Shown here piece after piece: positions 1 to 8,589 of a DNA stretch of 37,768 nt. The notes beneath the pieces are model-generated. The model made no database searches, had not been told where the DNA came from, and worked only from the letters and a program-made list of their open reading frames with translations. The stretch spans positions 1 to 37,768 of the forward strand of contig JAFRLB010000050.1 of the NCBI GenBank assembly GCA_017431405.1, given 5' to 3'. Source of the stretch: Erysipelotrichaceae bacterium (GTDB lineage Bacteria > Bacillota_I > Bacilli_A > Erysipelotrichales > Erysipelotrichaceae). Position numbers and translations under genes: made by a program. How positions within the stretch are numbered: the first letter of the stretch is position 1; every line of letters begins with the position of its first letter.

Positions 1-119
1 ATTTTCAGCGGGGACCGGCGGACGGCTATGCCCCCCTCGATGGGACCGAGTGGTACTACGAGGCGAGATTCTGGTCGGAAATGCCGGATCTGAACCTTGA
101 CAGCGTGGCCGTGAGAGCG
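1..119 (+). pseudogene. GH13 alpha-glucosidase/amylase fragment (foreign sequence)
   Basis: The plus frame starting at base 3 reads an uninterrupted GH13-type peptide up to base 119, including GYAPLDGTEWYYEARFW and MPDLNLD. MPDLN is the conserved region V of GH13 alpha-amylase-family enzymes. The stretch has no start and stops making GH13 sense after the AVRA that follows. It has 74 G/C in 119 bases, far above the A/T-rich remainder, and uses GC-ending codons. It abuts the C-terminal coding region of the surface protein on the other strand. I read it as a piece of another genome joined at the contig edge. A real recombination event is possible but less likely. Confidence 0.75.
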
Positions 120-2164
120 TTTTTCTGCTTCTTGAAGTAAGTTACATACATTGCTAATGTTGCGATTACTGTAGCGATTGCGGCTAACAGATTAGCTAAT
201 GCCCATGAAGCTCTTGCTTCTGTCAATGGTGCTTCAACATCTGCAATCTCTTCTGTTACTGCTGCCATTGGTACTTCAACTTCTTCGATCTCAATTACTG
301 TTTCTTCGATAACTACTTCTTCAACTGCTGCTGGTTCTTCATAAGCTGGCTGAGAAGGTGCTGGTGTGTATTCAACTACTGGTGCAGGAACTACTGCTGG
401 TTCTTCTGCTACTGGAGCTGGTTCTACGATTGTTGGTTCTTCTATTACAGGTTCTTCAACGATTGGTTCTTCAATGACTGGTTCGACTACTACAGGTTCT
501 TCGATTACAGGTTCCTCAATGACTGGTTCCTCGATGACTGGCTCTTCTACTACAGGTTCCTCGATTACAGGTTCTTCAATGATTGGCTCTTCGATGACTG
601 GTTCTTCGATGATTGGTTCAACTACTACAGGTTCCTCAATTACTGGTTCTTCGATTACAGGTGTTGGTTCTTCTTCAACTGGTTCTTCAACGATCTTTGT
701 GTATACCATGTAGATAACCTTATCTGAGTCTGCGATTCCCTTAACTGCATCGCCTCTTGTTTCCTTGAATTCATAACCCTTGATTGGGAATGCGTATGCA
801 TCTGAGAAATCATATTCCTTTTCGCCATTCAAGTCACTGCTTGCTTCATATTCACGGTGTGATGTCATGAAGATGCTGTTGCCTTCTTCGTCAATGTATT
901 CAACTTCTACTGTGATGTACTGCTTAACGAATGTAACGTTGATTCTGATTGTCAGATCCTGGTCTGTAACTGTGATCTCACTGTCAGCTGCGTTACCGTT
1001 TGATTCATGTGAGCCTGCGATGTATACTGTTCCGACTCTGTATAAGTCGTTTCCTAACATGATTGAATGATCTTCTTCATTGTATGTGAATTCTGATGTT
1101 GATAATAATTCTGAATCAAGTCTGAAGCTTTCACCGCTCTTAACTGTGATTTCTTTTCCTTCAACTACCTTATGTGCGTTTTCAGCGAATCCGTCAACCA
1201 TTCTTCCACCTGGAGCTGCGCTGAACTGATGTAAGATTGTTACCTTGTATTCTTTTACTTCAATTTCTTCTTCAACTGCTGGCTCTTCAACGATTGGTTC
1301 TTCGATGATTGGTTCTTCAATAACTGGTTCTTCGATTATAGGTTCTTCAATTACTGGTTCCTCAATGATTGGTTCCTCAATGATTGGTTCCTCAATGACT
1401 GGTTCCTCAATGACTGGTTCCTCAATGACTGGTTCTTCAATTACTGGTTCCTCAATAACTGGTTCCTCAATAACTGGTTCCTCAATAACTGGTTCCTCTA
1501 CTACTGGCTCTTCTACTACTGGTTCTTCAATTCTGACCTGAGTATCTAACAGCCATCCCTCATCATATTCGAAGTCAATTTCATATAAATAACCGTTTAC
1601 TCTGTATGACCATTCATATGACTTGTCTAATTCGATCCATGCAATGCCATTTTCATCAGCTACTGCTGTTGCTGTGATTGTTTCGGCACCTTTCTTTCCG
1701 GTTAATGTTAATTCATATCCTGGAAGTGGATTGCTGTTCTGATTGAAGAAATCAAATCCTACTCTGCCATATTCTGGTTCTGCTTCTAAAGCTTCCTGAG
1801 CCTGACTGTAATACAGATTTAAGATGACTTCCTTACCGTACAGATCACTCCAGTCTGCTGGGAAGATACTTGCATTTTCGCCATCGAAGCAGAAGACTAT
1901 TCCTTTTCTTCCATCGACCATGACGGTTGCTTTTTCATAATTTCCATAAGCATCTCCGTACAGCCATCCGAATGGGAAGCTTCCGTATTCCAGTTCAGGG
2001 AAGTCTGTATCAGTAGCTATGTCTGTAGCTGCCAGACTGTCGTTAACGTAAATGTTGACGTTTACGACTATCCCCTCATCAGCGAATACCTTTGAAGGTA
2101 ATAAATTTAATACTAAACAGAATGCTAATAATGTTCCGAATACTTTCTTTAATACTTTTTTCAT
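56..2164 (-). CDS. Repeat-rich cell-surface protein, C-terminus lost at a chimeric junction
   Basis: The 702-codon frame begins with a classical signal peptide (KK-x-x-KK, hydrophobic core about residues 8-22, likely cut after VFA at 27). A globular region follows (about 30-210), then a first run of five-residue EEPVI/EEPVV repeats (about 212-297). A middle region (about 305-490) includes a MucBP-like stretch (ITVEVEYIDEEG...GYEF), and a second proline/glutamate repeat run covers about 492-582. Near the C-terminus one membrane segment (WALANLLAAIATVIATLAM) precedes KKQK. This is the layout of an extended wall-spanning protein held by a C-terminal anchor. The last ~20 codons and the stop lie in the foreign GC-rich sequence, so the true C-terminus is missing. 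AAGGAG lies upstream of the ATG. Function (adhesin or stalk) is inference. Confidence 0.8.
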   Translation of the reverse strand: MKKVLKKVFGTLLAFCLVLNLLPSKVFADEGIVVNVNIYVNDSLAATDIATDTDFPELEYGSFPFGWLYGDAYGNYEKATVMVDGRKGIVFCFDGENASIFPADWSDLYGKEVILNLYYSQAQEALEAEPEYGRVGFDFFNQNSNPLPGYELTLTGKKGAETITATAVADENGIAWIELDKSYEWSYRVNGYLYEIDFEYDEGWLLDTQVRIEEPVVEEPVVEEPVIEEPVIEEPVIEEPVIEEPVIEEPVIEEPVIEEPIIEEPIIEEPVIEEPIIEEPVIEEPIIEEPIVEEPAVEEEIEVKEYKVTILHQFSAAPGGRMVDGFAENAHKVVEGKEITVKSGESFRLDSELLSTSEFTYNEEDHSIMLGNDLYRVGTVYIAGSHESNGNAADSEITVTDQDLTIRINVTFVKQYITVEVEYIDEEGNSIFMTSHREYEASSDLNGEKEYDFSDAYAFPIKGYEFKETRGDAVKGIADSDKVIYMVYTKIVEEPVEEEPTPVIEEPVIEEPVVVEPIIEEPVIEEPIIEEPVIEEPVVEEPVIEEPVIEEPVIEEPVVVEPVIEEPIVEEPVIEEPTIVEPAPVAEEPAVVPAPVVEYTPAPSQPAYEEPAAVEEVVIEETVIEIEEVEVPMAAVTEEIADVEAPLTEARASWALANLLAAIATVIATLAMYVTYFKKQKNALTATLSRFRSGISDQNLAS
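420..690 (-). repeat. 15-bp tandem repeat array, distal block
   Basis: Degenerate 15-base units (plus strand GGTTCTTCAATGACT and variants) encode the second EEPVI-type run of the surface protein, about 17-18 units. The reading frame is kept throughout. Variation is mostly at third positions, with some V/I and VVVEP changes. Confidence 0.85.
1276..1531 (-). repeat. 15-bp tandem repeat array, proximal block
   Basis: About 17 in-frame 15-base units encode the first EEPVI/EEPVV run. Several neighbouring units are identical at the DNA level (GGTTCCTCAATGACT and GGTTCCTCAATAACT repeated three times each), suggesting recent expansion by slippage or unequal recombination. Confidence 0.85.
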
Positions 2165-5165: not shown

Positions 5166-6005
5166 CTACAGTGCATCAGCGCCCGCAGTAATTTCATTAA
5201 CTTCCTGCGTAATGGCTGCTTGACGGGCCTGGTTGTAATTTAACTGAATCTGTTCGATTAATTCTCTGGCATTGTTATTGGCTGCATCCATTGCACTTCT
5301 TCTTGCTGCATGTTCACTTGTCTTAGCTTCCAGGAATGTAGCGTATACTACCGAGTTGATGTATCTTGGAACCAGGTAGTTGAACAGAGTTTCCTTATCA
5401 GGAACAAGTTCAATTTCCTTTGGTTCAAGTTCTTCCGGTATGTGCAAAGGCAGTAACTGGAAAGTAGAAGGCTGGAAAGTCAGCGTGTTGACATATTGGG
5501 TATAAACGATGTCAACATGCGAAATTTCTCTTTCCTGATAAAGGGTAATGATGTCATTGATCATTCTATTAATGATTGAAGTATTAGCATTATCCAATTC
5601 AGTATATCTTCTGATGACCAGATAGTCATTTTCATCCAGCCACTTAATACCATATGTTCCTATTGCGAAGATAGGTTCATTCTTGCTTATGTACTTCTGT
5701 ACATATTTCAGCAGATCCATGTTGTATGAGCCGCATAATCCAGAGTTACTGGTTATGACAATGTGTAATGGATTATCAGCACCGTTATCATTAAAGTAAA
5801 TGTTCGACTCATCCCTGGTACCCCTGGCTGAAAGCGCAGTTAAAATCATTTCCTGGTAAGCCTGGGAATACTGGTTGTTATCATTCATTACGCCCTTCTG
5901 CTTCTGCAGTTTGGCAGTTGATACCAGTGCCATCGCATTGGTTATCTTCTGAGTAGAGCGTATTGACCTGAGCTGACGTCTGATACTGCTGATTTGTCCT
6001 GCCAT
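5166..6005 (-). CDS. atpG: F1Fo ATP synthase gamma subunit
   Basis: 279 residues. The N-terminal helix (IRRQLRSIRSTQKITNAMALVSTAKL) and the C-terminal helix (RRSAMDAANNNARELI...NQARQAAITQEVNEI) are the two strongly conserved pieces that form the coiled-coil rotor shaft inside the alpha3beta3 ring. The middle domain, with SNSGLCGSYN, is also typical. The ATG overlaps the stop of the delta-alpha fusion gene by one base, so translation of the two is probably coupled. Confidence 0.95.
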   Translation of the reverse strand: MAGQISSIRRQLRSIRSTQKITNAMALVSTAKLQKQKGVMNDNNQYSQAYQEMILTALSARGTRDESNIYFNDNGADNPLHIVITSNSGLCGSYNMDLLKYVQKYISKNEPIFAIGTYGIKWLDENDYLVIRRYTELDNANTSIINRMINDIITLYQEREISHVDIVYTQYVNTLTFQPSTFQLLPLHIPEELEPKEIELVPDKETLFNYLVPRYINSVVYATFLEAKTSEHAARRSAMDAANNNARELIEQIQLNYNQARQAAITQEVNEITAGADAL

Positions 6006-8083
6006 TAGTTAACTCCGTTACCTGCTCTGCGATATGTGTCTGAGAACTTCATGATGGCATCTTCCAGCTTTGCTGTAAGTTCATCAGTGAAGATCTTCTT
6101 TTCTCTTAATTCATTTACCAGATCAGCATGATTGCTGTGCATTTCTACAAGCAGCTGCTTTTCATAGTCTTCCACTCTGTTAAGTCTGATGTCTTCAACA
6201 TAGCCCTTCTGAGCAGCGAACAGTATGATGATCTGATCTTCGATTGAATATGGTGAGTACTGCGGCTGCTTCAATAAAGCCATCAGTCTCTGACCATGGT
6301 TAATTGTTTTCTTGGTTGCGGTATCCAGATCACTGCCAAACTGAGCAAAATCCAATACTTCCTGATACTGCGCCAGTTCCAGTTTCAGAGAACTTGAAAC
6401 CTTCTTCATGGCCTTGCTCTGAGCGGCACTGCCGACACGGGATACGCTTAAGCCACTGTCAACAGCCGGTCTGTTACCACTGTTAAATAATTCTGTCTGT
6501 AAGAAGATCTGGCCATCTGTAATGGAAATTACATTGGTTGGAATATAGGCACTGATGTCACCGGACAAGGTCTCAACGATAGGTAAAGCTGTCATTGACC
6601 CACCGCCTAATGCATCAGAGAGCTTTGCGCTTCTTTCCAGTAATCTTGAATGCAGATAGAATACATCACCTGGGAAGGCTTCTCTTCCCGGAGGCCTTCT
6701 TAACAGTAATGATAATGTTCTGTATGCGATGGCATGCTTGCTTAAGTCATCGTAAACGATCAGAACATGCTGGCCATGTTCCATCCAGTATTCGCCGATT
6801 GCACAGCCAGCATATGGCGCAATATACTGTAACGATGCCAGTTCAGATGCACTTGAACATACGACAGTGGTATATTCCATGGCACCGTTCTGTTTCAGTT
6901 TTTCAACGATCTGAGCAACTGTTGATGCCTTCTGACCAATGGCAACGTATATGCACTTAACATTCTTGCCCTTCTGGTTAATGATCGCATCAACGGCGAT
7001 GGCCGTCTTGCCTGTCTGTCTATCACCAATGATAAGTTCACGCTGCCCCTTACCGATTGGGATCATTGAGTCGATGACCTTAATGCCTGTTTCCAGTGAT
7101 TCACTTACTGACTGTCTGGAAATAACACCAGGTGCATTTCTTTCGATTGGATAATATGCTGAAGGTCTGATAGGGCCATTGCCGTCAATTGGCTTACCCA
7201 AGGCATTAACTACTCTGCCTAACATTGTATCGCCTACCGGAACTTCAATGATTCTGCCGGTACTAACAGCCTGCTGACCTTCAACTACTTCAACTTCGTT
7301 ACCGAGTAATACGGCACCGATACTGTCTTCTTCAAGGTTCATGACCATGGCTTCGGTATCGCCGACTTCCAGTATTTCGCCAGCCATTGCCTTCGTCAGA
7401 CCCTTTACCTTTACGATTCCATCAGCGACTGTTTCTACGTAACCTACAGTATCTGAAGACTGCAGCGCAACTTTATCGCCAATGTCAAATTTCTTGATTT
7501 TTTCCTTAATGACTCTGCCCATTTCTTCAGTGCTTTCATATTCCTGAATGCCTGAAGTGAGCTTTTCACGCATGTTCTTAAGTCTTGTCTTATAAGAACC
7601 ATCCCATACGTAATCATCAACTACGACCTTAATACCGCCAACCATGTCTGCATCAAGTTTGTTCTCCAGCTTGACAGGGTGTTCAAGGCGGTCTGAAATG
7701 GCCTTTTCAATGTCAGCGACTGATTTGTCGTCTAACTTATGAACAGTATAGACTGTTCCAAACAATATACCTCTGATCTGATAATAGTGTTGAATGAAAT
7801 CATGTATTAACAGAAGTTCAGTATGATTTTTATTTATGGTTTTACTAACCAGGAAAAAGGTATTTAAAACACTAGTGTCCAAAGCATCACCAAAAATCTC
7901 CACAAGCTTATCCTTCTTTTCCTGTGAAGTATATTGGTCACTGTCAATGTATCTTCTCAGTTCATCTGATGAATTAAAGCCATCGTTCAATAAACTGAAC
8001 TGCTGGAAATAAAGGTCCTCCTTATTTTCCTGTCTGGCCATCTCCAAAAGATCCTGAGCATAGCGCTTTGTATCTAAACTCAT
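6005..8083 (-). CDS. atpA: Fused F1Fo ATP synthase delta-alpha subunit (AtpH-AtpA)
   Basis: A single 692-codon frame holds two normally separate subunits. Residues 1 to about 175 match delta (OSCP): [10 protein letters not shown] at the start and [29 protein letters not shown] at the end, the full normal delta length. Residues about 180-692 match alpha from its N-terminal helix ([15 protein letters not shown]) on. The P-loop is GDRQTGKT (353-360), Walker [12 protein letters not shown] (441-451), and the arginine finger lies in [10 protein letters not shown] (R549). A linker of only about ten residues joins them and no stop lies between. Met188 is the only plausible internal start for a free alpha, but no good ribosome site precedes it. 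The gene overlaps atpF (ATGA) and atpG. Fusion would give three deltas per F1 instead of one. Confidence 0.93.
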
Positions 8084-8589
8084 TTCTTTGATACTTCCTT
8101 AATAAAATCATCAACGATCTGACGGTCTGTCTTATTGTTCTGACGTTCGCCTAACATTTTTTCAGTTGCACTTAAAGCAACCTCAACAATGTCATCATGC
8201 ATTTCATCAAGCAGCTTGGCTTTCTGCAATTCTGCATTGTGCTGAGCTTCGTTCACTATCTGCTGAGAACGCTGCTTACCTTCTTCAACCAGCTCATCCT
8301 TAAGTCTCTGGCCTTCCTTCTGAGCCCTTTCAATTGTTTCCTGAGCTGTTTTGTCTGCCTTCTTTAATTCCTCATCAAGCTTTTCCTTCAACTCTTCATT
8401 TTCTTTTCTGAGATTTTCAGCTTCGATGAGTTTGTCCTGTTCAAACTTTGTACGTTCAGCCATGATTTTCTTAACTGGATTCCAGGCCAGCTTCTTAAGC
8501 AAGATGAACATTAACAAAGTTGCACACAGCTGTGTGATAACAGTCAGTGGATTAGGCATCAGATTTTCAATTACTGATATAATATCCAC
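8080..8589 (-). CDS. atpF: F1Fo ATP synthase b subunit (peripheral stalk)
   Basis: 169 residues, usual length. One N-terminal membrane helix (about 14-33, [21 protein letters not shown]) is followed by [12 protein letters not shown] and a long charged helix rich in E, K and Q (about 45-150) that forms the right-handed coiled coil of the stator. The C-terminal part normally binds delta on top of F1; here its partner is the delta part of the fused delta-alpha protein. Stop and start overlap the next gene as ATGA. A single atpF is present, so the stalk is presumably a b homodimer. Confidence 0.94.

What the first reader, a model, noticed from the sequence alone, without database searches (positions are those of the whole stretch)
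6005..8083. ATP synthase delta and alpha subunits fused into one polypeptide
One unbroken 692-codon frame holds a full-length delta (about 1-175) and a full-length alpha (about 180-692, P-loop 353-360, arginine finger R549) with a linker of only about ten residues. Bacterial F1 has three alpha and one delta; delta binds the N-termini of all three alphas on top of F1. A fusion would place three deltas there unless the protein is cleaved, two deltas remain idle, or free alpha is also made (Met188 is the only evident internal start, without a ribosome site). The known bacterial fusion of this kind is b-delta in mycobacteria, not delta-alpha. The geometry is at least favourable, since delta sits beside the alpha N-termini.
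Basis: partly seen in the sequence, partly recalled or inferred. Interest (0 to 1): 0.78.

Follow-up and report, generated by a model that had tools for sequence, protein, structure and literature searches.

The report
Fused delta-alpha ATP synthase subunit
In one lineage of gut bacteria the clamp (delta) and a motor block (alpha) of ATP synthase are encoded as one protein, so each motor should carry three clamps instead of one, which might change how many ions it spends per ATP.

Summary
In detail: window 6005-8083, minus strand, is one 692-codon frame holding a whole delta subunit (both domains) joined to a whole alpha subunit. It is not an assembly error: in 9 of 9 genomes of the genus one frame spans the junction, and the fusion recurs in two further genera; 14 complete fusions form one clade. 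No second alpha was found in 16 fused genomes, nor a second delta in the 13 tested. No conserved internal start was found at the junction.

Ueno et al. [quoted passage not shown] The window's linker aligns without a gap to that junction (PDB 9jc1). Here, however, the N-terminal domain is kept.

Most likely F1 carries three tethered deltas. Whether one or several stalks form is open; I give more than one stalk about 0.4. The alpha helix that docks delta has lost constraint. Na+-type c subunits and an oxaloacetate decarboxylase operon suggest Na+ energetics.

The parts
6005..8083 (-). delta-alpha fusion gene, 692 codons plus stop
   Evidence: conserved open frame in relatives
7769..8083 (-). delta N-terminal domain, residues 1-105
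   Evidence: OSCP profile match 3-172 of 172 over residues 6-175; domain border placed from the alignment and from the 105-178 C-terminal piece used by Ueno et al.
7550..7768 (-). delta C-terminal (stalk-binding) domain, residues 106-178, with W160, D161, G162 and Y164 in 14 of 14 fusions
7448..7549 (-). linker and degenerate alpha N-terminal helix, residues 179-212
   Evidence: the linker aligns without a gap to the GGSGGS linker of engineered chain 9jc1_I, and about five extra residues follow the helix
6005..7447 (-). alpha body, residues 213-692, and stop; TIGR00962 atpA matches 185-684
7004..7027 (-). P-loop GDRQTGKT, residues 353-360
6437..6439 (-).
8080..8589 (-). atpF, b subunit, 169 aa; stop overlaps the fusion's start
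   Evidence: PF00430; only b match in this 83%-complete genome
8594..8824 (-). atpE, c subunit, 76 aa, Glu24/Glu57/Thr58/Tyr62 (two-carboxylate Na+ type)
   Evidence: PF00137; alignment; F. nucleatum residues
8834..9559 (-). atpB, a subunit, 241 aa
   Evidence: PF00119; only a match in this 83%-complete genome
9644..9982 (-). atpI-like protein, 112 aa
   Evidence: PF03899, 26.2 bits, cut-off 25.1; no NCBIfam match
5166..6005 (-). atpG, gamma subunit, 279 aa
   Evidence: PF00231
3759..5153 (-). atpD, beta subunit, 464 aa
3357..3752 (-). atpC, epsilon subunit, 131 aa

Best explanation
This is the only F-type ATP synthase found in the genome. In an ancestor of this clade the atpH stop and the atpA ribosome site were lost, joining delta to alpha. 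Shown: an intact, conserved fused gene with no second alpha or delta found. Inferred (about 0.75-0.8): it is made and kept as one chain of about 76 kDa, so each F1 has three alphas and three tethered deltas. Inferred: each delta C-terminal domain sits beside its own alpha, in the register of the engineered fusion, so the alpha N-terminal helix is no longer needed to hold delta. Inferred (about 0.4): more than one of these domains captures a b2 stalk with its a subunit, raising the number of ions (probably Na+) per ATP. Otherwise (about 0.35, listed as the first rival but also a three-delta enzyme) one N-terminal domain takes the central site, one stalk forms, and two deltas are spare. The confidence given is for the three-tethered-delta statement.
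For: Whole-length profile matches to both subunits in one frame. 9 of 9 genus genomes fused across the junction; 14 complete fusions in one clade, 100/99 and 100/100 support. One OSCP match in each of 13 fused genomes, one alpha in each of 16 (two pieces of one gene in G002), one a gene and one b gene over the cut-off in each of 9. No conserved start with a ribosome site at the junction: best in-frame anti-SD energy there is -1.5 in the window, against a median of -10.8 (best start in the first 25 codons; -6.4 at the first start) for atpA of 15 unfused relatives. The linker aligns without a gap to engineered chain 9jc1_I, whose enzyme formed up to three stalks. The alpha N-helix has seven positions conserved in 26-30 of 31 unfused rows; it is degenerate in fusions and largely deleted in G004 and G008; its median distance relative to beta is 9.35 in fusions and 2.38 in unfused. 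The alpha barrel is remodelled, with a one-residue deletion in 12 of 12 fusions and 0 of 15 unfused rows aligned there. In the family sample a decarboxylase Na+-pump gene is enriched with fusions.
Against: Ueno et al. argue that the delta N-terminal domain sits on the symmetry axis and limits the enzyme to one stalk; here it is kept and evolves at the ordinary rate relative to beta (5.49 fused, 5.18 unfused). Predicted b ribosome sites are weaker in fusions (median -6.5 against -10.2), which does not suggest extra b, though delta and beta sites are also weaker. Neither a nor b is duplicated. Processing of the chain cannot be excluded from sequence. The AlphaFold model was useless (mean pLDDT 32.8). 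The Na+ c-subunit glutamate is not peculiar to fusions: 6 of 14 unfused c subunits printed have it too.
Confidence: 0.75

Rival explanations
1. Single-stalk enzyme with spare deltas: the chain stays fused, one N-terminal domain takes the central crown site, one b2 and one a bind, and two deltas are idle or structural. The fusion is a fixed, near-neutral loss of a stop codon. (A branch of the best explanation: three tethered deltas, but one stalk.)
For: N-terminal domain kept under ordinary constraint; its presence is said to enforce one stalk; b ribosome sites not strengthened. All 32 unfused rows extracted have a delta frame ending within 200 bases of alpha, and in many relatives the two are in the same frame with one stop between, so fusion is a short step.
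Against: The fusion persists over alpha cores that differ down to about 64% identity with no re-split gene among 16 fused genomes, the alpha docking helix has lost constraint, the alpha barrel is remodelled, and there is probably at least one separate lineage of delta-alpha fusions (single origin only marginally rejected).
Confidence: 0.35
2. The chain is cut, or free alpha is also made, so the assembled enzyme is conventional with one delta and three free alphas.
For: Linker sequence and length vary among the 14 fusions, as an exposed segment would. G008 alone has a strong predicted ribosome site before an in-frame GTG at codon 195 (-12.3), with weaker ones at codon 208 in G008 (-8.1) and at codons 175-176 in G033 (-7.5, -7.2).
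Against: No start with a ribosome site at the junction is shared across the fusions; Met188 is Ile in G007; the strong G008 site has no counterpart of like strength in its sister G004. No cleavage motif is evident by eye in the alignment; none was searched for. A conventional enzyme would be expected to keep the alpha N-helix, which is lost in G004 and G008.
Confidence: 0.15
3. Assembly or annotation artefact: a missed stop or frameshift in a metagenome assembly.
For: The window is from an assembly of 105 contigs, 83% complete; reads were not available.
Against: 14 whole fusions with an open frame in separate genomes, with alpha cores about 64-97% identical (bin means), including G033, 99% complete.
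Confidence: 0.01

Closest known systems
Engineered Bacillus PS3 delta(dN)-alpha FoF1 (Ueno et al. 2025, PMC12229609; PDB 9jc1)
   Same: C-terminal end of delta joined to the N-terminal end of alpha; window residues 105-678 align to chain residues 2-570, and the linker aligns without a gap.
   Different: The engineered chain lacks delta residues 2-104; the window keeps the whole N-terminal domain and has about five extra residues between the alpha helix and the barrel. Stalk number is known only for the engineered enzyme.
Natural delta(dN)-alpha genes: Acidaminococcus fermentans, G4Q3K6, A0A1I2C5T3 (Ueno et al. discussion), and those found here in G009, G019, G029, G121, G162, G199, G269, G247
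   Same: Natural delta-alpha fusion.
   Different: They lack most or all of the N-terminal domain. Those in the window's family, and G199 and G269, lie beside an ordinary delta elsewhere in the genome; G247 (75% complete) shows no other OSCP match. On the alpha tree 8 of 9 such rows (with G143) form one clade and G247 groups with G176/G187, all away from the window's clade. I did not see the A. fermentans or UniProt sequences.
G176 and G187 second-operon fusions, 676 aa (L100, L101)
   Same: Delta with its N-terminal domain (OSCP 19-172 in both) fused to alpha.
   Different: Other family, beside an ordinary delta in the same genome, and on the alpha tree next to G247 and unfused G240, not with the window's clade.
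Mycobacterial b-delta fusion (NF009961 / PRK13428; mycobacterial origin recalled)
   Same: Delta fused to another stator subunit.
   Different: The partner is b; here b is a separate ordinary gene.
Fusobacterium nucleatum Na+ ATP synthase c-ring (PMC3692424, passages read)
   Same: Two glutamates per c-subunit site with Tyr.
   Different: Ser66 and Thr67 positions are Thr and Cys here; ring size unknown.

Membership tests
Bacterial F1Fo ATP synthase | Complete a, b, c, alpha, beta, gamma, delta, epsilon set | tested here: met
   Pfam matches for all eight parts
Bacterial F1Fo ATP synthase | Delta and alpha as separate chains, one delta per F1 | tested here: not met
   One frame, no second copy of either found; protein stoichiometry itself not testable
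Delta(dN)-alpha multi-stalk class (Ueno et al. 2025) | Delta C-terminal domain covalently joined to the alpha N-terminus | tested here: met
   (gene level)
Delta(dN)-alpha multi-stalk class (Ueno et al. 2025) | Delta N-terminal domain absent | tested here: not met
   OSCP profile matched from position 3 to 172; residues 1-105 align with ordinary delta
Delta(dN)-alpha multi-stalk class (Ueno et al. 2025) | More than one peripheral stalk and a subunit | not testable with these tools
   Needs protein work; indirect evidence points both ways
Mycobacterial b-delta fusion | Delta fused to b | tested here: not met
   b is a separate 169-aa gene
Two-carboxylate Na+ c-ring | Glu in both helices of the c subunit at the ion site, plus Tyr | tested here: met
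   Glu24, Glu57, Tyr62; both Glu and the Tyr in 12 of 12 fusion operons aligned
Two-carboxylate Na+ c-ring | Na+ is the transported ion | not testable with these tools
   none

The most novel reading that the evidence does not exclude
[quoted passage not shown] With a ring of 11 c subunits (the F. nucleatum number, assumed here), three a subunits would mean about 11 Na+ per ATP.
Probability: 0.35. Interest if true: 0.88.

Novelty: new variant of a known kind. Interest (0 to 1): 0.63.

Why it matters
Ueno et al. [quoted passage not shown] A lineage that ties a whole delta to each alpha is a natural test of the rule, and of whether the delta N-terminal domain really forbids a second stalk. It also gives an engineered design a natural counterpart in what looks like the only ATP synthase of the cell. 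The statistical link with Na+ decarboxylase genes offers a physiological reason that can be checked.

Tried and rejected
First junction script read some loci on the wrong strand; redone. A first comparison of delta conservation at matched alpha-core identity suggested that delta is more constrained in fusions. Normalising to beta showed that the alpha core itself is faster in fusions (1.76 against 1.30), so that reading was dropped for the N-terminal domain (5.49 against 5.18); the C-terminal domain, b, a and c are somewhat slower in fusions (3.95/4.76, 3.74/4.91, 2.52/3.90, 1.80/2.64) and gamma is alike (3.19/3.29). Pairs in these medians (63 and 105) are not independent. Internal initiation was tested and not supported. 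RnfC as a source of ion gradient: no match over the cut-off in 9 genomes. One origin for all 25 fusions in the 71-row tree: p-AU 0.0386, a borderline rejection, and the set was tested after an earlier tree had been seen. The node that places the window's clade among the family's ordinary operons has support 86/98, below the tool's star.

The decarboxylase association was thought of after seeing the window's genus. Counts by genome: 9 of 13 full-length fusions (G151, cut by a contig end, counted as full), 5 of 6 delta(dN), 17 of 126 others. By genus 5 of 6 against 7 of 53, p 0.00085; without the window's genus 4 of 5 against 7 of 53, p 0.0035, and for full-length fusions by genome p 0.012. Genus g3 counts as fused though G010 and G090 in it are unfused and have the gene too; relatedness is not corrected for.

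Rows dropped or chosen: G023 (truncated delta) left out of the unfused set (31 of 32 used); G016 left out of the first tree because my motif search missed its alpha; pairs with beta at or above 93% identity left out of the medians; G003 and G006 had no full-operon fetch, so searches use 12 of 14 fusions, and 15 unfused genomes that I picked of 32; one search added 19 rows that I picked from the further loci fetched.

Literature searches. PMC12229609: abstract, introduction, and the sections on design, SDS-PAGE, stalk interaction and discussion read; its supplement was not available. PMC5709465 and PMC3692424: passages only. The other papers listed were seen as listings only. The only paper in these listings that I saw to describe a delta-alpha fusion is PMC12229609, and there without the N-terminal domain; most subscription papers are not in the library.

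Full report
What is there. Window 6005-8083, minus strand, is a 692-codon frame with no internal stop. Residues 6-175 match the delta/OSCP family over nearly its whole length, and 185-684 match bacterial AtpA at 774.7 bits. It lies in the operon atpI-a-c-b-(delta-alpha)-gamma-beta-epsilon; the start codon overlaps the b stop, and the gamma start overlaps the fusion's stop by one base.

It is real. All 9 genomes of the genus that are held carry the fusion: 8 whole, and in G002, which is cut by contig ends, residues 1-371 lie in one frame. In 145 sampled genomes of the family, 133 have an OSCP match; 12 of these have a near-complete match inside a frame of 686-697 aa, a thirteenth (G151) is cut by a contig end, and nearly all others have a separate delta in a frame of about 173-194 aa. 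The nearest named relative is the MAG Erysipelotrichaceae bacterium RGIG4363 from roe deer jejunum. The 14 whole fusions are one clade on alpha-core trees of 52 rows (100/99) and 71 rows (100/100); in the larger tree the clade lies among the family's ordinary atp operons (86/98). The 13 fused genomes have one OSCP match each; the 9 of the genus and the 7 others have one alpha each (two pieces of one gene in G002); the 9 of the genus have one a gene and one b gene over the cut-off (G004 and G008 have a further match below it).

How it arose. In many unfused relatives delta ends with a stop just before an AGGTG-type ribosome site and the alpha start, often in the same frame. In the fusions the stop, the ribosome site and the start are gone. 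Met188 is isoleucine in the 97%-identical G007. The best in-frame anti-SD energy at the junction is -1.5 in the window; for 15 unfused atpA genes the median is -10.8 for the best start in the first 25 codons and -6.4 at the first start. Among 12 fusions, G008 (-12.3 and -8.1) and G033 (-7.5) have stronger sites, none shared by all.

What changed in the protein. Relative to beta, the delta N-terminal domain diverges about as fast in fusions as in unfused genes (5.49, 5.18), so it is not decaying. The alpha N-terminal helix, with seven positions conserved in 26-30 of 31 unfused rows, diverges about four times faster in fusions (9.35 against 2.38) and is mostly deleted in G004 and G008. The other parts of alpha also diverge faster, the barrel 2.55 against 1.58, and 12 of 12 fusions aligned share a one-residue deletion in the barrel. 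W160, D161, G162 and Y164 in the delta C-terminal domain are invariant in 14 of 14 fusions. I read this as loss of the helix's job, which in ordinary F1 is to hold delta: per Ueno et al. one alpha N-terminal region contacts the delta C-terminal part and two contact the N-terminal part.

Closest known thing. Ueno et al. fused delta residues 105-178 of Bacillus PS3 to alpha and obtained up to three stalks and a subunits, two on average, and an H+/ATP ratio of 5.8. Window residues 105-678 align along that chain (9jc1_I); the engineered GGSGGS lies where the natural linker lies, without a gap, and about five extra residues follow the helix in the window. They also reported that A. fermentans has such a fusion with the N-terminal domain missing and that two UniProt entries show similar features. 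I find more of that kind in the window's family and class, mostly as second operons; on the tree 8 of 9 such rows are one clade and the ninth, G247, lies next to G176/G187, all away from the window's clade. A single origin of all fusions is marginally rejected (p-AU 0.0386). G176 and G187 have a second-operon fusion that keeps the N-terminal domain.

How it probably works. Three alphas per F1 imply three tethered deltas. The match to the engineered junction makes it plausible that each C-terminal domain can sit at the b-binding place of its own alpha. The N-terminal domain is the obstacle: Ueno et al. hold that it occupies the symmetry axis and permits one stalk. With three present, at most one can take the ordinary place. 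Either the other two are displaced and their C-terminal domains still bind b2 and a (several stalks, about 0.4), or they are idle (about 0.35), or the chain is processed (about 0.15). Sequence cannot decide.

Physiology. The c subunit has Glu24 and Glu57 with Tyr62, the two-carboxylate Na+ pattern of F. nucleatum; so do the other 11 fusion operons aligned, but the first Glu is also present in 6 of 14 unfused ones. The genome has PEP carboxykinase, a carboxyltransferase, a biotin carrier, a biotin ligase and the Na+-pumping oxaloacetate decarboxylase beta subunit in one row on contig C70. That beta subunit is found over the cut-off in 7 of 9 genus genomes, and in the family sample in 9 of 13 full-length fusions, 5 of 6 delta(dN) fusions and 17 of 126 others. 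This is exploratory and not corrected for descent; without the window's genus it remains at p 0.0035 by genus. A high ion/ATP ratio would suit a small Na+ gradient; that is inference.

Verdict. A real, lineage-fixed delta-alpha fusion that keeps the whole delta: a new variant of a kind that I know in print only from a 2025 paper, with a sharp, testable stoichiometry question.

Noticed in passing
L032 98-2365 (-), genome G143: A second-operon alpha of 755 aa begins with three tandem, diverged delta C-terminal modules (three by eye; one search lists two OSCP matches in the frame, one best stretch), so three alphas would offer nine stalk-binding modules.
   Followed up: partly
L045 4434-4802 (+), genome G023: A separate delta of only 122 aa with most of the N-terminal domain missing, next to an ordinary alpha; this genome also has the decarboxylase beta subunit.
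   Followed up: partly
L038 5724-6770 (+), genome G112: A 348-aa protein between c and alpha of a second operon, with an N-terminal hydrophobic stretch by eye and OSCP at 194-334: a b-delta-like fusion.
   Followed up: no
G163 and G144 (L039, L040): These two share genus code g3 with unfused G010, G090 and G122, but their alpha groups with fused g26 genomes; transfer of the operon or a genus that needs splitting.
   Followed up: partly
window 7769-8083: Synonymous divergence is low in the N-terminal-domain part of the gene in close pairs: dS 0.110 against 0.319 in the alpha core for G000-G007, 0.017 against 0.169 for G005-G006, 0.622 against 1.114 for G033-G103; not so for G000-G005 (1.583 against 1.413). 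Recombination or an RNA-level constraint.
   Followed up: no
window 7230-7453: The Pfam barrel domain PF02874 is not reported for the window's alpha although TIGR00962 covers it; the region carries a shared one-residue deletion and VADG in place of VGDG in 13 of 14 fusions.
   Followed up: partly
window 56-2164 (-): A 702-aa protein with long EEPVIEEP-type repeats, a signal-like start and a C-terminal hydrophobic stretch (by eye), probably surface-attached.
   Followed up: no
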